This document shows positions 56,285 through 64,000 of a DNA stretch of 64,000 nt, one piece after another. The notes under the pieces are model-generated. The model ran no database searches. It had not been told where the DNA came from and saw only the letters and a program-made list of their open reading frames with translations. The position numbers and the translations under genes are program-made. Source of the stretch: an uncultured Pelagibacteraceae bacterium (GTDB lineage: Bacteria; Pseudomonadota; Alphaproteobacteria; Pelagibacterales; AG-422-B15); the NCBI GenBank assembly GCA_902617525.1, contig CACMWW010000003.1:1-64000 (forward strand). Reading direction: 5' to 3'. Position 1 is the stretch's first letter; each line of letters begins with the position of its first letter.

Positions 56285-57346
56285 ATGGATCCTAATTTAA
56301 AAAAAATTCGAGACTCTGTCATTGAGTACACTTTAAAGTTGGACAATGACCAACTTGCACTCTTATTGTTAATTCAACTTTCTCGTCATCAAAATCTATT
56401 TATTCATGAGCCGTCAGATTGGGAAGATAGTCCAACAGGTTGGATTACAAAAGATCAAAGACTGCAAGATGAAGTTATTGCTATTTTATCTTTTATAATA
56501 CTTTTTTCATTTACAAACGCATACCACGATGAAAATTTATTCAAGGAGCATAGGAAAGAAATATTAGCAATGCATCCAGAGGATTTTCTTAATAATTCAA
56601 TTTATCAGTCATCATTTAATCGATTCATTGGCAAAAAAATTACTATCAGTTCACTTTCAGATCATTTCAATATTCCAAAAGAAAGTATGAGAAGATATCT
56701 AAATTCAGTTTTAGAAAGTGATTTGATAACCAAGAATTCAAAATATGGATACCTTGTAAATTTTGACGCTTATCAAGCATATATATTTACGAATTCATTA
56801 AGTAATATTTACAAATCAGTAATGCGCTCATTGAATGATTTTATATTAAATCTTGAAGATTATTTTGACATTAAATTTAATTTAAAGCCTCTAACTTCAA
56901 TCAATACAAAAAAATTTTCACAGTCTAAATGGAACAGAGTACGATTGCATTTATATCACTTCTGGGTAAGAATTCTTACATTAGAAGGTAGCGATCAATC
57001 ACTTTTACCAGCTGATCGTATAATACTCTCAGCTGCAGTATATTTTAAAAACAGACACGGTATATTAAAGTATAAATCCATTGAAGATTTATATGAGAGT
57101 GAACATCTTCTTCCAACAAACCTATCTTCAATTTCTGAGGCAGCAAAAATGCCGCGTGAAACTGTAAGACGATCTAGCAAGAAATTAATTGAATTGAAAC
57201 ATCTTGAAAAAAAGGGGAGAAATATTTACCGAGTTAATTACCCAAAACTCAATGGAGAGGTAGATATTTTTTTAAAATTTAAAGAATTAACTTTTACAGA
57301 AATGATGAACTTTTATTTCAATATTTATGAGGATCTAACGAGTTAA
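56285..57346 (+). CDS. Putative transcription regulator with two winged-helix domains
   Basis: A 353-aa protein I do not recognise as a named family. It contains two similar helix-turn-helix segments: ISSLSDHFNIPKESMRRYLN (about residues 120-139) and LSSISEAAKMPRETVRRSSK (about residues 279-298). Each is followed by a wing-like strand pair (NSKYGYLVNF; KGRNIYRVNY) and each is preceded by a helical region, so the protein looks like an internal duplication. The first gene half also has a hydrophobic segment (VIAILSFIILFSFTNAY). It is divergent from glnT and convergent with the TolC gene, sharing a TTAA bidirectional stop. Confidence 0.68.
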   Translation: MDPNLKKIRDSVIEYTLKLDNDQLALLLLIQLSRHQNLFIHEPSDWEDSPTGWITKDQRLQDEVIAILSFIILFSFTNAYHDENLFKEHRKEILAMHPEDFLNNSIYQSSFNRFIGKKITISSLSDHFNIPKESMRRYLNSVLESDLITKNSKYGYLVNFDAYQAYIFTNSLSNIYKSVMRSLNDFILNLEDYFDIKFNLKPLTSINTKKFSQSKWNRVRLHLYHFWVRILTLEGSDQSLLPADRIILSAAVYFKNRHGILKYKSIEDLYESEHLLPTNLSSISEAAKMPRETVRRSSKKLIELKHLEKKGRNIYRVNYPKLNGEVDIFLKFKELTFTEMMNFYFNIYEDLTS

Positions 57347-60165
57347 ATTGAACACATTAGAATGACTTCTTCATTACAAGTAAGCTCAGCGTCAATAATT
57401 GAGCTATTCTCAGAACTTAATTGAGTATCAAGTTCTTCGAGCATTGATTTAGCCTCAACCATAGGAACTGGGCCGATTACTACTGAGAAGTCATTTTTAT
57501 CAAATTTTTCAACATTAATATCATATTTGAGGAAACGAGTATCAAAGCCCATTAAATCATATATGTAATTCATTAAGCTATTCGCCGAATTTCCTCGTTT
57601 ATATGACCCGATCTTAATATAAGCATACTCTGCATTTGATGAACTTTCTGAAAGATCATTGTCAGTTTCAGCTGGTACTTCACTTGCTTGAGCACTGAAA
57701 GAATTAGTTTCAGTATCAATACTTGTATCGACAAGTTCATTTAAATTTTCTAAAGCCTCTTCAGCCTCTTTAGCTAACTTTTCTTCAAGTGCTTCTTGAG
57801 CAGCTTTTTCTTCTAACTCTTTTTGTTTATTTTCTTCAATTAATTGAGCTAATTCTTCTTTTGCTTCAGCAGTTTCAGAAAGCAGTTGCTCATTTTCAGT
57901 GAGAAGTTCCTCATTCTCAGCTAAAAGCTTTTCGTTTTCTTGAATAATTTTTTTTGTTGGCAAAATATTATCTTCTTCAACTGCATTAGCACTTGTTTCA
58001 TTTGTAGTTATAACTTCGTCATCAGTATTGGCACTGGCAGTTTCATCAAAGATTTGATTATTAAACTCTAGTGAGTCCTGTTCTTCATTCAATTGGTCAA
58101 GTGATCCTTCAAGCAACTGATCAACCGAGTCCAGAAGGTCATTTAGTTCTTCAGCTGATACATTACTAAACTCATATTCTGCCTCAATTGGTTCAGATGT
58201 TGTTTCTTCTACTTCCATTTGATCTTCAACTTCAACAGTTTCAACTGAAACTGCTTCCACTTCTTCATCCGGCAATACTTCATCTTCATTACTTAACCTT
58301 GTCATCCGCGCAAGTTCTTCTCTTGCTTTCTGACTTTCATTTGCGAGGAAAGTTTCTTCATCAACAAATCTTAGAACAAAGTTATCCTCAGCTGATACTA
58401 GGGCATTTGCAACTGTCATTTTAAGTTTTATACCTGATACATCCTCTGGTGGGTTACCAACTATTGATAAATCTGATGTGAGGAAAGCAAGCCATCGAGG
58501 TAAGTCAGTGCCATCTTCTTGTGTCACTGAGTATCTCAATTTTCCTGGCCCAGTGATATTAAATGTATCTTTAGATACCTTAAATTTGTTACTAGATTGT
58601 TTTGTATTAATCGGGTCTGTGATTACTAGAAGTTGTGGGTTTTGATCATTCAAAGGAATATTAACTGCTGCCTGATAAGTTACGCCCCACTCAGCTAGAT
58701 TGGCTTTTATGCTATTACCTAAGTCCTCGATTGATAGATTTTGATGATCTGCTGGCAAAATGTCTTTACCAATTGATGCATAAATCTGACCGATACTGTG
58801 CTGCATTTCAGAGAAGGCTAAATCTTTTCTTAGCTCTGCAACTAAAAGACTTGCTTCTTCTCGAATAACTTCAAGCTCACCAAATCTTGAGACTTTCTGG
58901 GCATTTTTGACTTGTTTACTTATTCTTTGTGCCACATCCAAATATCTTTGCGCTGTGTCATATTCCTCAATTGCAAGGTCATAATTGATATTCGATAAAT
59001 GAACCTGAGAGAGTACTGTCATGGCTATTGCAAGATGTCTTTCGGCAATGAGCTCTTGGTTTGCCTTCGAAGCTTTTCTAGTTGCTCCAATTGAGAAGAT
59101 GTCAAATAGATTGCCGCCGATTGATGCTCCATACTCTGTTGTATCTTGATTTAGCAAGTAATCATTATTTGTGTAACCATATGCAGCATTAAATTTTAAG
59201 CTTGGTATAAGTGCTAACATAGCTGCCCTTGTATCTTTACTTGTAATTCTTTTTTGATATCGACTTTCCATAAGTTCAGGTCTTGAAAGAAGTGCTATTT
59301 CCTCCATAGCTTGAATATCCATATTAAGGTTTGTTAAATATGTATCATTCTCAGCAAGTGTGAATTTTTCACTAGGAAGCAGACCCATTAATGTTGCTAA
59401 CTCGTTTTTTGAATTTACGAGAGCACGTTTTTGTGTTTGAAGTGTTCTCTGTACGTCAAGTAACTCTTTTTGATAAAGTAAAGAGTCCATTGGGGCCGAG
59501 ATTAAAAGTTCTTCAATGTATTGAGAATCTGCCAATGCGTCTTCAACTCTCTTAAGGAGTGGGTTAAGTTTTTCAAGAAGATTTTCTGATGCTTGGGCTT
59601 TCCAGTATGACCTGATAATATCTCTAGTAATATTTTGAATAGCCTTTCTCTCAAGTTCCTTCGCAATTAAATATCTATCCGCCTGTTGTCCTGCCCTTAT
59701 GTATGAGAGTCCAAAGTCTAGTGCATTCCAAGTAAATTCAATACCTCTTGTTGCCTGACCTTTATCTCTTGAGATAGTGTATCCTTCGGTTCCATCAATT
59801 GATGGTGCAACACTATCATCCGATGCAACGGTTTTACTAGTAGAAGGTTGAAGTTCCGTAAATTCAGAATAACCAGCACTGAGTGCTATGTCAGGAAGCA
59901 TATCAAATTTTTGCAAGTCTCTTTGACTCTGTGATAGAGCAGACTCCATAACACTTAACCTTAAATCGCGATTGTTTCTGACAGCAATTGCAATTGCAGT
60001 GTGTAAATCAATATTTTTTAAAGATTCGTCAATTTCAAGTTCGGCAATTTCCTCAGCAACTGAAACACTTAATGACTCTGCATCAATTACTCTTGGAGAT
60101 CGTGCACAAGCAACGAGCGCCAAACATATGAAAACTATAAATAATTTTTTTATTGGGTTGACCAT
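57343..60165 (-). CDS. TolC-family outer-membrane lipoprotein with cadherin-like, coiled-coil and SPOR-like extension
   Basis: A 940-aa protein, about twice the length of TolC/NodT channels. A lipoprotein signal ends at LALVAC (Cys about 20). The TolC efflux domain covers about residues 50-490: LHTAIAIAVRNNRDLRL, MLPDIALSAGYSEF, YWKAQASENLLEKL, then the second repeat ALIPSLKFNAAYGYTNND. Next comes a dystroglycan-cadherin/He_PIG-like domain (about 515-620; GKLRYSVTQEDGTDLPRWLAF), a Glu-rich linker, a coiled coil (about 755-830; ENEKLLAENEELLTENEQLL) and a SPOR-like domain (about 865-935; YIKIGSYKRGNSANSLMNYI, FSVVIGPVP). Such channels serve type I secretion or efflux. It is divergent from the giant repeat protein, its likely cargo. 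Confidence 0.85.
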   Translation of the reverse strand: MVNPIKKLFIVFICLALVACARSPRVIDAESLSVSVAEEIAELEIDESLKNIDLHTAIAIAVRNNRDLRLSVMESALSQSQRDLQKFDMLPDIALSAGYSEFTELQPSTSKTVASDDSVAPSIDGTEGYTISRDKGQATRGIEFTWNALDFGLSYIRAGQQADRYLIAKELERKAIQNITRDIIRSYWKAQASENLLEKLNPLLKRVEDALADSQYIEELLISAPMDSLLYQKELLDVQRTLQTQKRALVNSKNELATLMGLLPSEKFTLAENDTYLTNLNMDIQAMEEIALLSRPELMESRYQKRITSKDTRAAMLALIPSLKFNAAYGYTNNDYLLNQDTTEYGASIGGNLFDIFSIGATRKASKANQELIAERHLAIAMTVLSQVHLSNINYDLAIEEYDTAQRYLDVAQRISKQVKNAQKVSRFGELEVIREEASLLVAELRKDLAFSEMQHSIGQIYASIGKDILPADHQNLSIEDLGNSIKANLAEWGVTYQAAVNIPLNDQNPQLLVITDPINTKQSSNKFKVSKDTFNITGPGKLRYSVTQEDGTDLPRWLAFLTSDLSIVGNPPEDVSGIKLKMTVANALVSAEDNFVLRFVDEETFLANESQKAREELARMTRLSNEDEVLPDEEVEAVSVETVEVEDQMEVEETTSEPIEAEYEFSNVSAEELNDLLDSVDQLLEGSLDQLNEEQDSLEFNNQIFDETASANTDDEVITTNETSANAVEEDNILPTKKIIQENEKLLAENEELLTENEQLLSETAEAKEELAQLIEENKQKELEEKAAQEALEEKLAKEAEEALENLNELVDTSIDTETNSFSAQASEVPAETDNDLSESSSNAEYAYIKIGSYKRGNSANSLMNYIYDLMGFDTRFLKYDINVEKFDKNDFSVVIGPVPMVEAKSMLEELDTQLSSENSSIIDAELTCNEEVILMCSI

Positions 60166-60372
60166 TTATTTGTTTTTATAAAAACCAAGATACTGTCTTA
60201 ACGGGTAACCGTATCCGGCGCAAGTAATACCAAACTTTAGTAATTTCAGTGTATATATAACCGCCCATTTTGGGTTTTTTTTGCGATCTTGCTACATTTA
60301 GTAGCATTACTGCTGTATACAGAAAAGGTATATTTATCAATAAATTACTAAATTTTATTTATATAAATTAAC
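60166..60372. promoter_or_regulatory. Divergent control region between TolC-like and giant repeat protein genes
   Basis: A 207-bp gap, the longest non-coding stretch in the window. It contains GCTAC-N5-GTAGC (60291-60305), the palindrome CTGTATACAG (60313-60322) and CCCA-TTT-TGGG followed by eight T residues (60265-60282 region, plus strand), which could act as a weak attenuator in a long leader of the repeat-protein gene. Promoters for both genes must lie here; none is clear enough to mark. Confidence 0.45.
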
Positions 60373-63300
60373 ATGACCAAAAAACTAATTCAGGCACTCG
60401 AACCACGTATGATGCTCGATGGAGCTGCGGTTGCAACTGCAATTGATACCATTGATGACTTAGCAAATGCGAACAAAACTGATTTAGACAAAAGATTAAA
60501 AGAAAATAATTTTAAAACCGAACAAGATACAAAACTTCCATTTGTAAATCGTGAAAGCATTAATCAAAACACACGCACAAAACAATTTGTGTTTATTGAT
60601 AGTGCAATCGATGACATCGAAGTCTTAATTGAAAGTTTTGATGACAATACTGAAGTGCACATCATCCAAAGTGATGTGGATGGTTTTAAAGAGATGCAAA
60701 ATATTCTCGCTGATGAAAAAAACATTGATGGTATTCATGTTATTGGTCACGGTAGCATTGGTCAGATTGCATTTGGTGATGCGATTTTAAACAGTGATAC
60801 ATTAAATGAGTACAAACAAACTTTAAAAGACATTGGCGCAAGCCTCAGTGCTGATGGTGATATCTTATTCTACGGTTGTAATATTGCAGCAGATGAAAGT
60901 GGCGAGATTTTAATTAAGCAAATTGCTGAAATTACTGAAGCTGATGTAGCGGCATCAGATGATGTAACGGGTAAAGGTGGTGACTGGGATCTTGAAAAGC
61001 ATTCAGGTATTATTGAGACTAAAAATATTGATGTTGAGAATTATGCTCATTCACTTGCAAATGGAGTAGCTTCAACTGATGCAGATGTAGTTGAAATTCA
61101 CAGTGCTACAAATTATCGAGCAAGATGGTCAGGTGATAATTCTGGCGGTCAACAAGATCCAAGTTCTGATCGATTTATTATCTCTCAAGAGAGAGCTGAT
61201 GTAACAGGTGGAGCAGGGACTTTAAATTTTGACGTATCAGGAGCAAAGAGTTCACATACACCAAGTTCTAGTGAACCAGTTCATGTATATTTACTTTTTT
61301 CAAATGATGACACAGATAGCAATAGCCGTCGATCTGGTTCAAGAACAGGTGTTGTGACTTTTGAGAATGACATTTTAGGTGTCTTTACCAGTCCGTACAA
61401 CACGATTGCTATGACAGGAATTTCAAAATCAGGGGCCTCATATCCAACAGCAAGTTCGGACAAAATCGGAATGAGGGATTTGGAGTATAAAAATGATAAT
61501 GCGCCAGGACAGCAGGGGAATAAAGACTGGTTTAGAATTTATAACTCAAACAGATCGATTGAAATTGGTACAAAAAACGGCCTTAAAGGTGACTTTATTC
61601 GTGTCATTACTAGAGCTCCAATCGAAAACAATGGACCTACTGGTAATAACGACACGGGGGCAGTAAATGAAGATGCGAGCGTTTCAGTAACTGCGGGCAG
61701 TGGTGTTTTATCAAATGATACAGATCCTGACGGTGATACACTATCCGTAAGTGCAATATCAGGCGGCTCCATTGGATCAGCTCTAAATGGTACATACGGT
61801 CAGCTAACTATGAGTGCAGATGGCAGCTACACTTATATCGCAAATAGAGATGATGCAGACCCTCTTGATCCAGGCGATACAGTAACAGATACATTTACAT
61901 ACACAGTATCTGATGGAACTGATACAGATACCGCAACACTCACAATTACTATTACTGGAGTTAATGATCCGATAACAGCTGTGAATGATACAGATGCTGT
62001 GAATGAAGATGCAACAATTAATCGAAGCACTTCGGACTCTCAAGAGTTAGATCATGACGACACCGACCCTGATGCCGATGATGCGTCTGGTAGCTTTACA
62101 ATCACTGCAATTAGAACAGGAAGAGAATCTGCAACCAGTGGAACAACTGCAGGCACAATCGGACAGGCTCTAAATGGTACTTACGGTGTATTAACTGTAG
62201 CTGCAGATGGTAGCTATAGCTATGCCGCAACCAGAAGCGGAGCAGATGCGTTAGCGGCAGGAGTATCAGCAATTGATTATTTTACCTATACAGTAAGAGA
62301 TCATGCAAGCAGTCCAAATGATACAGATACTGCTGAGCTTGCAATAACAGTAACAGGAGTAGGTCCAAGTGCGAGCAATGATACTGGCAGTGTAAATGAA
62401 AATGCAACTCTAACAGCAAATGCTGGTGCAGGTGTAATTGCAAATGACACAGGTGGCGACACAGAAAGTCTCGCAGTTACTAACATCAGTTCAAATGCTA
62501 CTGGAAACAGTGGTAACGCTGCTCAAGGTGTTCTTGGAACATATGGTACGCTCACAGTAGCTGCTGATGGCAGTTATACTTATGTTGCTAACACAGCAGC
62601 AGCAGAAGCACTCGATGCAGGTGACGAAGTCACAGATATTTTTACTTATACAGTCAAAGATGATGATGATGTTAATTCAGATACAGCAACTCTAACGATT
62701 ACAGTTACAGGTGTAGACGATGACCCAGTTGGTAACAATGATGCAGGCGCAATCAATGAGGATAAAACCCTTACTGTTAGCGCGGGAAGCGGAGTATTAT
62801 CAAATGATACTGATGCAGATGCTAGTTCAAGTCTATCAGTTTCTGCAATTTCGGGCGGTACAGTTGGTGCATCATTAAATGGAACCTATGGTGTTCTGAC
62901 TTTGAGTTCAGATGGTAGTTATACTTATGTTGCAAATGGTAGAAGTGAGGATGGTCTCGCTGCTGACGCCACGGCAACCGATACATTCACGTATACCGTA
63001 AGTGATGGAGCAGGAACAACCGATACAGCAGATTTAGTCATCACAGTAACCGGAGTTGGTCCGCAAGCCGTTAATGATACCGGTGCAGTCAATGAAGATG
63101 CCACTTTAACAGTAAATGAAGCATCTGGTGTAATCAGTAATGATGATGACAATGCAAGTTACGACGTAGAGAGTTTAGCCATAACTGGCATTTCTCACGG
63201 CGTTACTGGAAATAGTGGTAATGCTGCACAAGCTGTTACTGGAACATACGGTGTTTTAACTATGGCGGCTGATGGTAGCTATACATATGTTGCTAACCAA

Positions 63301-64000
63301 GCAGCGGCTGATGAACTTGATCCGAGTGAGACGGCAACAGATGTGTTTACATACACCGTTAAAGACGATGCTGATAAAAATGCCAGTACTGCAACATTAA
63401 CCATAACCGTAACGGGGTTAGCTGATGCAATCACTGCTGTTGATGATACAGATGCAGTAAATGCTGGTAGCACAATTTCGAGAAGCACGAGCGATACACA
63501 AGAACTTGATCACGATGACACCGATGATGATGGTGATGATGTTCCAGGTAGCTTAACCATTACAGCAATACGAACTGGTCAAAAATCAGGCAGTGGTGAC
63601 GCTAAAACACTTGGGCAATCGTTTACTACAACTTATGGAACAGTAACAATCAATGCTGACGGTTCATATTCTTACGCTGCCAATCGAAGTGGCGCAATGA
63701 GCTTATCTGATGGTGCGACTGCAGTTGATTACTTCACATATACTGTAAGAGACCAATCTGGCAATACCTCTAATGGACAACTTGCAATTACTGTGACTGG
63801 AATTGACTCAGGATCAAATAACGCTCCTGTTGCCAATAACGATACTGGAGCTGTTGATGAAGATGCAACACTTACAGTAAATGCAGCCAGTGGGGCTGAA
63901 TCAAATGATAGTGATCCAGATGGAGATGATATTTCTGTTGTGGCTATATCTGGAGGATCTGTTGGCTCAGCTGTAACAGGTACTTATGGACAATTAACAA
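60373..64000 (+). CDS. Giant secreted repeat protein: LEPR-XLL start, DUF4347, VCBS repeats (partial)
   Basis: An uninterrupted plus-strand frame of 1,209 codons runs from ATG 60373 to the window end, so the ORF track missed it. The N-terminus LEPRMMLDGAA (residues 9-19) is the LEPR-XLL-type motif of very large exported proteins. DUF4347 follows (about 69-225; FVFIDSAIDDIEVL, IHVIGHGSIGQIAFGD, ILFYGCNIAAD), then an unassigned beta-rich domain (about 230-415) and at least seven VCBS/cadherin-like repeats from about residue 424 (NNDTGAVNEDA, GTYGQLTMSADGSYTYIAN, DTFTYTVSDG). It is acidic, Asp-rich and cysteine-poor, as expected for a calcium-dependent surface adhesin exported by a type I system. 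The C-terminus and secretion signal are outside the window. Confidence 0.9.
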   Translation, partial: MTKKLIQALEPRMMLDGAAVATAIDTIDDLANANKTDLDKRLKENNFKTEQDTKLPFVNRESINQNTRTKQFVFIDSAIDDIEVLIESFDDNTEVHIIQSDVDGFKEMQNILADEKNIDGIHVIGHGSIGQIAFGDAILNSDTLNEYKQTLKDIGASLSADGDILFYGCNIAADESGEILIKQIAEITEADVAASDDVTGKGGDWDLEKHSGIIETKNIDVENYAHSLANGVASTDADVVEIHSATNYRARWSGDNSGGQQDPSSDRFIISQERADVTGGAGTLNFDVSGAKSSHTPSSSEPVHVYLLFSNDDTDSNSRRSGSRTGVVTFENDILGVFTSPYNTIAMTGISKSGASYPTASSDKIGMRDLEYKNDNAPGQQGNKDWFRIYNSNRSIEIGTKNGLKGDFIRVITRAPIENNGPTGNNDTGAVNEDASVSVTAGSGVLSNDTDPDGDTLSVSAISGGSIGSALNGTYGQLTMSADGSYTYIANRDDADPLDPGDTVTDTFTYTVSDGTDTDTATLTITITGVNDPITAVNDTDAVNEDATINRSTSDSQELDHDDTDPDADDASGSFTITAIRTGRESATSGTTAGTIGQALNGTYGVLTVAADGSYSYAATRSGADALAAGVSAIDYFTYTVRDHASSPNDTDTAELAITVTGVGPSASNDTGSVNENATLTANAGAGVIANDTGGDTESLAVTNISSNATGNSGNAAQGVLGTYGTLTVAADGSYTYVANTAAAEALDAGDEVTDIFTYTVKDDDDVNSDTATLTITVTGVDDDPVGNNDAGAINEDKTLTVSAGSGVLSNDTDADASSSLSVSAISGGTVGASLNGTYGVLTLSSDGSYTYVANGRSEDGLAADATATDTFTYTVSDGAGTTDTADLVITVTGVGPQAVNDTGAVNEDATLTVNEASGVISNDDDNASYDVESLAITGISHGVTGNSGNAAQAVTGTYGVLTMAADGSYTYVANQAAADELDPSETATDVFTYTVKDDADKNASTATLTITVTGLADAITAVDDTDAVNAGSTISRSTSDTQELDHDDTDDDGDDVPGSLTITAIRTGQKSGSGDAKTLGQSFTTTYGTVTINADGSYSYAANRSGAMSLSDGATAVDYFTYTVRDQSGNTSNGQLAITVTGIDSGSNNAPVANNDTGAVDEDATLTVNAASGAESNDSDPDGDDISVVAISGGSVGSAVTGTYGQLT
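61642..64000 (+). repeat. Tandem VCBS-type repeat array (three unit subtypes)
   Basis: Units begin near 61642, 61978, 62371, 62731, 63067, 63436 and 63832, giving lengths of about 112, 131, 120, 112, 123 and 132 residues, the seventh being cut by the window end. By sequence they fall into three subtypes: A (SGVLSNDTDPDGD, AISGGS), B (STSDSQELDHDDTD, ITAIRTG) and C (GVIANDTGGDTESLA, TGNSGNAAQ), in the order A-B-C-A-C-B-A. The units have diverged at DNA level, so the array is old rather than freshly amplified. Confidence 0.85.

What the first reader, a model, noticed from the sequence alone, without database searches (positions are those of the whole stretch)
57343..64000. Candidate dedicated adhesin secretion/retention pair: extended TolC lipoprotein divergent from a giant VCBS protein
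The outer-membrane channel gene and a giant LEPR-XLL/DUF4347/VCBS gene share one control region. Giant proteins of this type are normally type I secretion cargo, and the channel has extra domains that could tie it to peptidoglycan and to the cargo. No ABC exporter (HlyB-like) or adaptor (HlyD-like) gene is visible in the window, so either they follow the giant gene or lie elsewhere. A channel adapted to one giant substrate would be a new variant of type I secretion.
Basis: partly seen in the sequence, partly recalled or inferred. Interest (0 to 1): 0.72.

Follow-up and report, generated by a model that had tools for sequence, protein, structure and literature searches.

The report
ABC-free exporter for giant surface proteins
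The tolC-like gene and the giant repeat gene found back to back in this SAR11 bacterium belong to a widespread, apparently undescribed five-gene cassette that seems to export giant proteins carrying an N-terminal LEPR tag, with an intramembrane protease fused to an adaptor where other systems use an ABC pump.

Summary
A TolC-type lipoprotein gene (57343-60165, minus) faces a giant LEPR-XLL/DUF4347/VCBS gene (60373 onward; 2,328 aa, ends at contig base 67359). Past the window end, same strand: an RND-type adaptor (239 aa), a GAF-like/HlyD adaptor (445 aa) and a 702-aa fusion of a PqqD-like N-domain, an M50 intramembrane protease and a complete HlyD-type adaptor. No ABC gene belongs to the cassette. 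It recurs across Pseudomonadota, in Nitrospira and on E. coli plasmids. In 397 genomes, 59 of 61 with LEPR in ORFs of at least 850 aa have M50-HlyD. Cassette giants carry LExRxxxD (51/52 N-termini); DUF4347 proteins from genomes lacking the cassette do not (0/12). Two complete SAR11 genomes with the cassette show no type I secretion ABC. A sister class, with ORFs up to 19,427 aa in the set, has a short SecA paralogue beside M50 in 17/21 loci. Best reading: an ABC-independent export system with LEPR as substrate tag. Untested: transport itself, leader cleavage, energy source. I found no prior description.

The parts
57343..60165 (-). Extended TolC-type outer-membrane channel lipoprotein (940 aa)
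   Evidence: OEP x2, 113 bits; lipobox Cys invariant in 49 aligned cassette TolCs; 66-67% identical genus homologues at the same place
58375..58632 (-). CADG/He_PIG-like domain in the TolC extension (aa 512-597)
   Evidence: Pfam PF05345, 25.9 bits over cut-off 24; He_PIG in 4/49 cassette TolCs
57346..57630 (-). Conserved C-terminal domain of TolC (aa 846-940), function unknown, SPOR not confirmed
   Evidence: 71-78% identical in three genus members after a variable linker; no Pfam or SPOR hit
60166..60372 (.). Shared divergent control region; CCCANNNNTGGGT inverted repeat near 60263-60275
   Evidence: CCAnnnTGGGT core kept in four SAR11 sequences from two families; functional role not tested
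60373..64000 (+). 5' part of the giant cargo gene. The whole gene is contig C3:60373-67359 (2,328 aa). The other cassette genes lie beyond the window on the same strand: adaptor C3:67371-68090, GAF-like/HlyD C3:68087-69424, PqqD-like/M50/HlyD C3:69425-71533
   Evidence: Giant. Adaptor: RND_mfp 105.8 bits, over cut-off. GAF-like/HlyD: HlyD_3 and HlyD_D23, GAF in 8/27 homologues. M50-HlyD: Pfam M50 and HlyD, HExxH invariant in 46, AF2 pLDDT 85.7, MacA-like adaptor fold
60397..60423 (+). LEPR-XLL motif LEPRMMLDG (aa 9-17), proposed export leader
   Evidence: L9, E10, R12, D16 invariant in 23 aligned giants; 51/52 cassette giants; association with M50-HlyD
60589..61029 (+). DUF4347, caspase-like fold, cargo domain
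   Evidence: 160 bits; AF2 core and Foldseek to Tce1 and caspases

Best explanation
A dedicated, ABC-independent export apparatus for giant surface proteins that carry an N-terminal LEPR-XLL leader. The lipoprotein TolC channel, a periplasmic adaptor and a membrane-bound GAF-like/HlyD adaptor supply the outer conduit; the inner-membrane part is the PqqD-like/M50/HlyD fusion. Shown here: the parts, their linkage, and the association of the LEPR motif with M50-HlyD. Inferred: (1) the PqqD-like N-domain, on the cytosolic side, binds the disordered LEPR leader; (2) the M50 site cleaves or gates the leader; (3) the polypeptide crosses the inner membrane beside or through this protein, possibly pushed by SecA (the housekeeping one here, a dedicated short paralogue in the sister class), and leaves through TolC; (4) folding of the repeats outside may help pull; (5) the caspase-like DUF4347 domain may process or anchor the cargo, and CADG-type extensions on some TolCs may hold it at the surface.
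For: Cassette conserved in order across distant taxa and inherited together (tree distances correlate, r 0.72-0.86). LEPR in ORFs >=850 aa: 59/61 genomes have M50-HlyD, odds ratio 377. Natural control: DUF4347 proteins without the cassette lack LEPR (0/12) and several have Sec-like signals or adjacent ABC+HlyD; cassette giants without DUF4347 keep the motif. No ABC in the cassette; complete genome G041 has MsbA as its only ABC_membrane protein. No Sec-like hydrophobic stretch near the motif in 57 giants. M50 core related to RiPP leader proteases (46/46 daptide model, 34/46 YydH/LiaK, below cut-offs). Adaptor part fits MacA, Z 15.8, rmsd 5.6 over 219 residues. Short SecA beside the sister-class M50 in 17/21 loci, 0/45 in the main class.
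Against: No experiment shows export. The energy source in the main class is not identified and has no gene in the cassette. PqqD likeness of the N-domain is weak in sequence (2/30 at E 0.015) and its fold was not searched alone. 2 of 61 genomes have LEPR ORFs without a detected M50-HlyD. Some genus members carry an unlinked type I ABC, and the window's genome is only 86% complete. Association statistics ignore shared ancestry.
Confidence: 0.6

Rival explanations
1. The giant crosses the inner membrane by another route (for example Sec with an atypical signal), and the cassette is a processing and surface-retention machine: M50 trims the leader while adaptors and the TolC lipoprotein hold the protein.
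For: M50 proteins are proteases; some TolCs carry CADG, cadherin or SPOR domains; the sister class has a SecA paralogue.
Against: No Sec-like signal in 57 cassette giants; three adaptors plus TolC look like a conduit; the cassette tracks the N-terminal motif rather than a C-terminal anchor.
Confidence: 0.2
2. Unusual type I secretion: the inner-membrane step uses an unlinked ABC exporter shared with other cargo, and M50-HlyD is accessory.
For: TolC and HlyD parts; an LssB-like ABC with HlyD exists elsewhere in some genus members.
Against: Complete genome G041 has the cassette and a 7,337-aa giant but only MsbA as ABC_membrane protein; the type I locus has its own repeat cargo without LEPR; linked ABC-exporter-like ORFs in 3/105 loci.
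Confidence: 0.12
3. The cassette exports something else (small molecule or polysaccharide) and the giant is only co-located.
For: RND-type adaptors and TolC also serve efflux.
Against: No pump gene recognised in the cassettes; the association follows the LEPR motif of the giant itself and holds at unrelated chromosomal sites.
Confidence: 0.05

Closest known systems
Type I secretion (HlyB-HlyD-TolC; LapBCE adhesin secretion)
   Same: TolC channel, HlyD-type adaptors, giant repeat adhesin-like cargo
   Different: No ABC exporter; M50 protease fused to an adaptor; N-terminal LEPR motif instead of RTX/C-terminal signal; no LapG. All tripartite systems in the review PMC8277102 have ABC, RND or MFS pumps (abstract)
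Pseudoalteromonas tunicata BapP locus (MFP + LolD-like ATPase + two ABC transporter genes, PMC12153261)
   Same: Large Bap-like adhesin beside its adaptor
   Different: Keeps ABC components
RiPP-maturation intramembrane metalloproteases (daptide HExxH NF041824; YydH/LiaK NF058609)
   Same: M50 core; daptide model covers aa 23-391 including part of the N-domain
   Different: Scores below curated cut-offs; fused to a complete adaptor; cargo is a giant protein, not a small peptide
C39-peptidase ABC exporters (PCAT) with leader peptides
   Same: One protein would couple leader recognition and cleavage to export (inference)
   Different: Different protease, no ATPase; PCATs with active C39 carry small cargo (PMC8277102)
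Accessory Sec (SecA2/SecY2) export of giant serine-rich repeat adhesins in Gram-positives (from memory, a lead only)
   Same: Dedicated SecA paralogue next to a giant surface protein, as in the sister class here
   Different: Gram-negative; adaptor/M50 proteins present; the main class has no SecA paralogue in the cassette

Membership tests
Type I secretion system | ABC exporter in the locus or genome | tested here: not met
   Not in the cassette; complete genome G041 has only MsbA. Some other genus members have one in a separate locus
Type I secretion system | HlyD-type adaptor and TolC-type channel | tested here: met
   Pfam OEP and HlyD, NCBIfam RND_mfp; closer to RND-type than to HlyD models for the 239-aa adaptor
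Type I secretion system | RTX repeats in the cargo | tested here: not met
   0 GGxGxD motifs in this giant; 2 of 80 linked giant ORFs have 3 or more. A C-terminal type I signal without RTX was not tested
LapA/LapG two-step adhesin retention | LapG protease (PF06035) and its site | tested here: not met
Tripartite RND or MFS efflux | RND or MFS pump gene in the operon | not tested
   No pump-sized gene between the cassette members, but no RND or MFS profile was run
M50 (site-2) intramembrane proteases | HExxH plus a second motif with Asp in the membrane domain | tested here: met
   H195, E196, H199 and D297-G298-Y299 invariant in 46; Pfam M50 in 46/46. Enzyme activity not testable here
PqqD/RRE leader-binding domain | Profile or fold match | tested here: inconclusive
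   beta3-alpha3 in AF2; Pfam PqqD 2/30 at E 0.015, sister-class member E 0.008, both under cut-off; WgkC model in 1/46
LEPR-XLL (NF012209) | Score over the curated cut-off near the N-terminus | tested here: met
   21 bits in the genome scan, cut-off 17; 15.5 bits on the whole protein
SPOR domain on TolC | PF05036 match | tested here: inconclusive
   No match at E 5 and no SPOR chain in the PDB profile search; real SPOR in 2/49 other cassette TolCs; this domain's fold was not predicted

The most novel reading that the evidence does not exclude
A new class of Gram-negative protein secretion system: a cytosolic LEPR leader is recognised and cleaved by a PqqD-like/M50/HlyD protein that hands giant proteins to a TolC conduit with no ABC, RND or MFS pump, and a sister branch recruits a truncated SecA as motor for proteins of many thousand residues.
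Probability: 0.5. Interest if true: 0.93.

Novelty: categorically new. Interest (0 to 1): 0.85.

Why it matters
It gives a candidate function to the LEPR-XLL motif of very large bacterial proteins and to a family of M50-HlyD fusions that public records name only 'HlyD family efflux' or 'peptidase'. Relatives occur in 83 of 397 sampled Pseudomonadota genomes, in Nitrospira, and in streamlined SAR11 cells, one of which spends about 1.7% of its genome on one such giant. If true, giant-protein export would exist without an ABC pump, and tools that look for secretion systems by their ABC gene would miss it. It is testable in cultured hosts.

Tried and rejected
(1) SPOR on this TolC: no profile support. 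(2) LapG-type retention: absent. (3) ABC genes a little downstream (drrA-like ATPase at C3 72379-73302, FtsX-like permease at 76169-77419): opposite strand and not next to the cassette in G020, G022, G041 or G043. (4) DUF4347 as the link: rejected; it occurs without the cassette and the cassette occurs without it, while LEPR tracks the cassette. (5) A generally active DUF4347 protease: the Cys or His is replaced in some Nitrospira copies. (6) Promoter scan of the shared region: nothing above shuffles. (7) VIA-align rows covered only the adaptor part of the M50 model, so the fold of the N-domain and of the membrane part stays untested. (9) Literature searches (LEPR-XLL; DUF4347; M50 with HlyD; PqqD with M50 and HlyD; SapC with SecA and HlyD; others) found no description; LEPR-XLL appears only as a domain name, e.g. 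in a Vibrio genome paper (PMC10868602). Preprints and most subscription papers were not covered.

Full report
What is there. The window is contig C3:1-64000 of an incomplete genome (1.10 Mb, 86% complete). Its M50 gene is matched at 97-100% by single-cell genomes named uncultured Pelagibacteraceae, so the source is SAR11. The 940-aa TolC-type gene (57343-60165, minus) and the giant gene (60373-67359, plus, 2,328 aa) diverge over 207 bp. Downstream, abutting or overlapping by a few bases, lie a 239-aa RND-type adaptor (C3:67371-68090), a 445-aa protein with HlyD domains behind a TM stretch (C3:68087-69424), and a 702-aa protein with Peptidase_M50 and HlyD domains (C3:69425-71533). After that the strand changes.

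The set is conserved. 30 of 36 genomes of the genus (own genome included) and 2 of 23 of another family of the order have the M50-HlyD gene. In that other family the cassette sits between different genes, with an extended TolC (638 and 830 aa) again beside the giant gene; one giant there is 7,337 aa (two in-frame ORF pieces, G041 895694-917707). Sampling of 387 alphaproteobacterial and 397 pseudomonadotan genomes finds relatives in 26 and 83. Neighbourhoods repeat giant-TolC-adaptor-GAF/HlyD-M50/HlyD, or the four machinery genes followed by the giant. In 69 non-SAR11 loci with at least 7 kb upstream and 4 kb downstream: GAF/HlyD 66, adaptor 64, TolC 54, giant or LEPR ORF 55, ABC-exporter-like ORF 2. 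The same operon sits on plasmids of E. coli and Kosakonia cowanii, annotated generically; 24 of 5,426 E. coli genomes have the M50 gene, and the E. coli giant begins with ...RFALESRQLFDGAAL. Tree distances of the four machinery proteins agree over 54 loci (r 0.72-0.86); part of this is shared species history.

The LEPR motif is what follows the cassette. Among giants found by the N-terminal profile near M50 genes, 51 of 52 complete N-termini have L-E-x-R-x-x-[FLYM]-D-[AGS] within the first ~115 residues; the exception is an internal fragment. L9, E10, R12 and D16 are invariant in an alignment of 23. In 12 loci from genomes without M50-HlyD, DUF4347 proteins have no such motif: L261-L264 start with Sec-like signals, L266-L268 have an ABC of about 770 aa with a HlyD protein next door, and L260 and L265 carry RTX motifs. 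Conversely, Micavibrio giants without DUF4347 keep a related motif, LEKRLMLDAS, beside the cassette. In the 397-genome sample 59 of 61 genomes with the NCBI LEPR model in ORFs of at least 850 aa have M50-HlyD (odds ratio 377, own genome left out of the test). For DUF4347, 62 of 68 genomes with full-length M50-HlyD against 22 of 328 others. Shared ancestry inflates these p-values. Limits: regular expression and profiles come from cassette members, and the control set is small.

No ABC. The cassettes lack one. Complete genome G041 has a single ABC_membrane protein, best matched by the MsbA model (518 bits, below its own cut-off of 602). Complete genome G043 has one of MsbA length and strength plus a PglK-like one. 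Two of the MacB-type hits were scanned and are LolC/E-like; a 865-aa one in G041 was not. Some genus members do have type I parts: in G020 an LssB-like ABC with a HlyD protein beside a repeat protein, and in G022, G020 and the window's genome a second TolC of about 450 aa next to the start of a repeat protein or at a contig end. That separate locus is a useful contrast: its repeat protein begins MPVTQAEAQEFF, without LEPR.

The M50-HlyD protein. AF2 (pLDDT 85.7) shows a beta3-alpha3 N-domain (about 1-90), a membrane domain with the HELGH helix and the FDGYY loop, and a complete adaptor from about 430 on, closest to MacA (Z 15.8, rmsd 5.6, 219 aligned residues). Helices at 144-163, 178-205, 237-264, 269-289, 340-371, 374-402 and 411-428 suggest seven TM segments, which would put N-domain and adaptor on opposite sides of the membrane; this is my reading of hydropathy and helices. 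All 46 members match the daptide intramembrane protease model and 34 the YydH/LiaK epipeptide protease, below curated cut-offs: relatives of the core process leader peptides. PqqD likeness of the N-domain is suggestive only.

The cargo. The leader region is disordered in the model; the DUF4347 core resembles Tce1 (9qpe) and then caspases. Own giant: no RTX and no LapG site. In 57 cassette giants no 12-residue stretch up to 45 residues past the motif start reaches a mean hydropathy of 2.0; 49 of 72 cassette TolC N-termini do. The measure is crude, not a signal-peptide predictor.

A sister class hints at the energy source. Divergent M50-HlyD members (weaker matches) lie near very large LEPR ORFs. 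In L135 the order is giant, GAF/HlyD (621 aa), M50/HlyD, SapC, SecA-like (660 aa). A short SecA paralogue lies within 1.3 kb on the same strand in 17 of 21 such loci and near 0 of 45 main-class genes; most main-class genomes have one SecA. This points to a Sec-type motor in place of an ABC ATPase in that branch. For the window's branch it is inference.

Judgement. It looks like a type I secretion conduit on the outer side but fails defining tests (ABC, RTX), so it should not be filed as type I. It is made of known parts in a combination for which I found no description. I am confident that the cassette and LEPR giants belong together, moderately confident that the cassette exports them, and least sure of leader cleavage and motor.

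Noticed in passing
L135:9723-16700; genomes G563, G641, G454, G783 and others: Sister class: very large LEPR proteins followed by GAF/HlyD, divergent M50-HlyD, sometimes SapC, and a short SecA paralogue (about 660-720 aa), same strand, 17/21 loci.
   Followed up: partly
window 56285-57346 (+): 353-aa HTH-like gene convergent with and overlapping tolC by 4 bases; homologues in the same place in two genus members. A possible regulator.
   Followed up: partly
window 60263-60275: CCCANNNNTGGGT inverted repeat in the tolC/giant control region, core kept in four SAR11 sequences from two families.
   Followed up: no
L007:1-1804; L287:11251-15498; L289:6332-14001: Separate canonical type I locus in the genus: TolC of about 450 aa, large Ala-rich to Gly/Met/Pro-rich repeat protein, LssB-like ABC, HlyD; assemblies break in the repeat gene.
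   Followed up: partly
G041 C1:895694-917707: 7,337-aa LEPR/DUF4347/VCBS protein in a complete 1.31-Mb SAR11 genome, about 1.7% of it.
   Followed up: partly
control set: A LEPR-XLL match over the cut-off in Deinobacterium chartae, outside Pseudomonadota; presence of M50-HlyD there was not checked.
   Followed up: no
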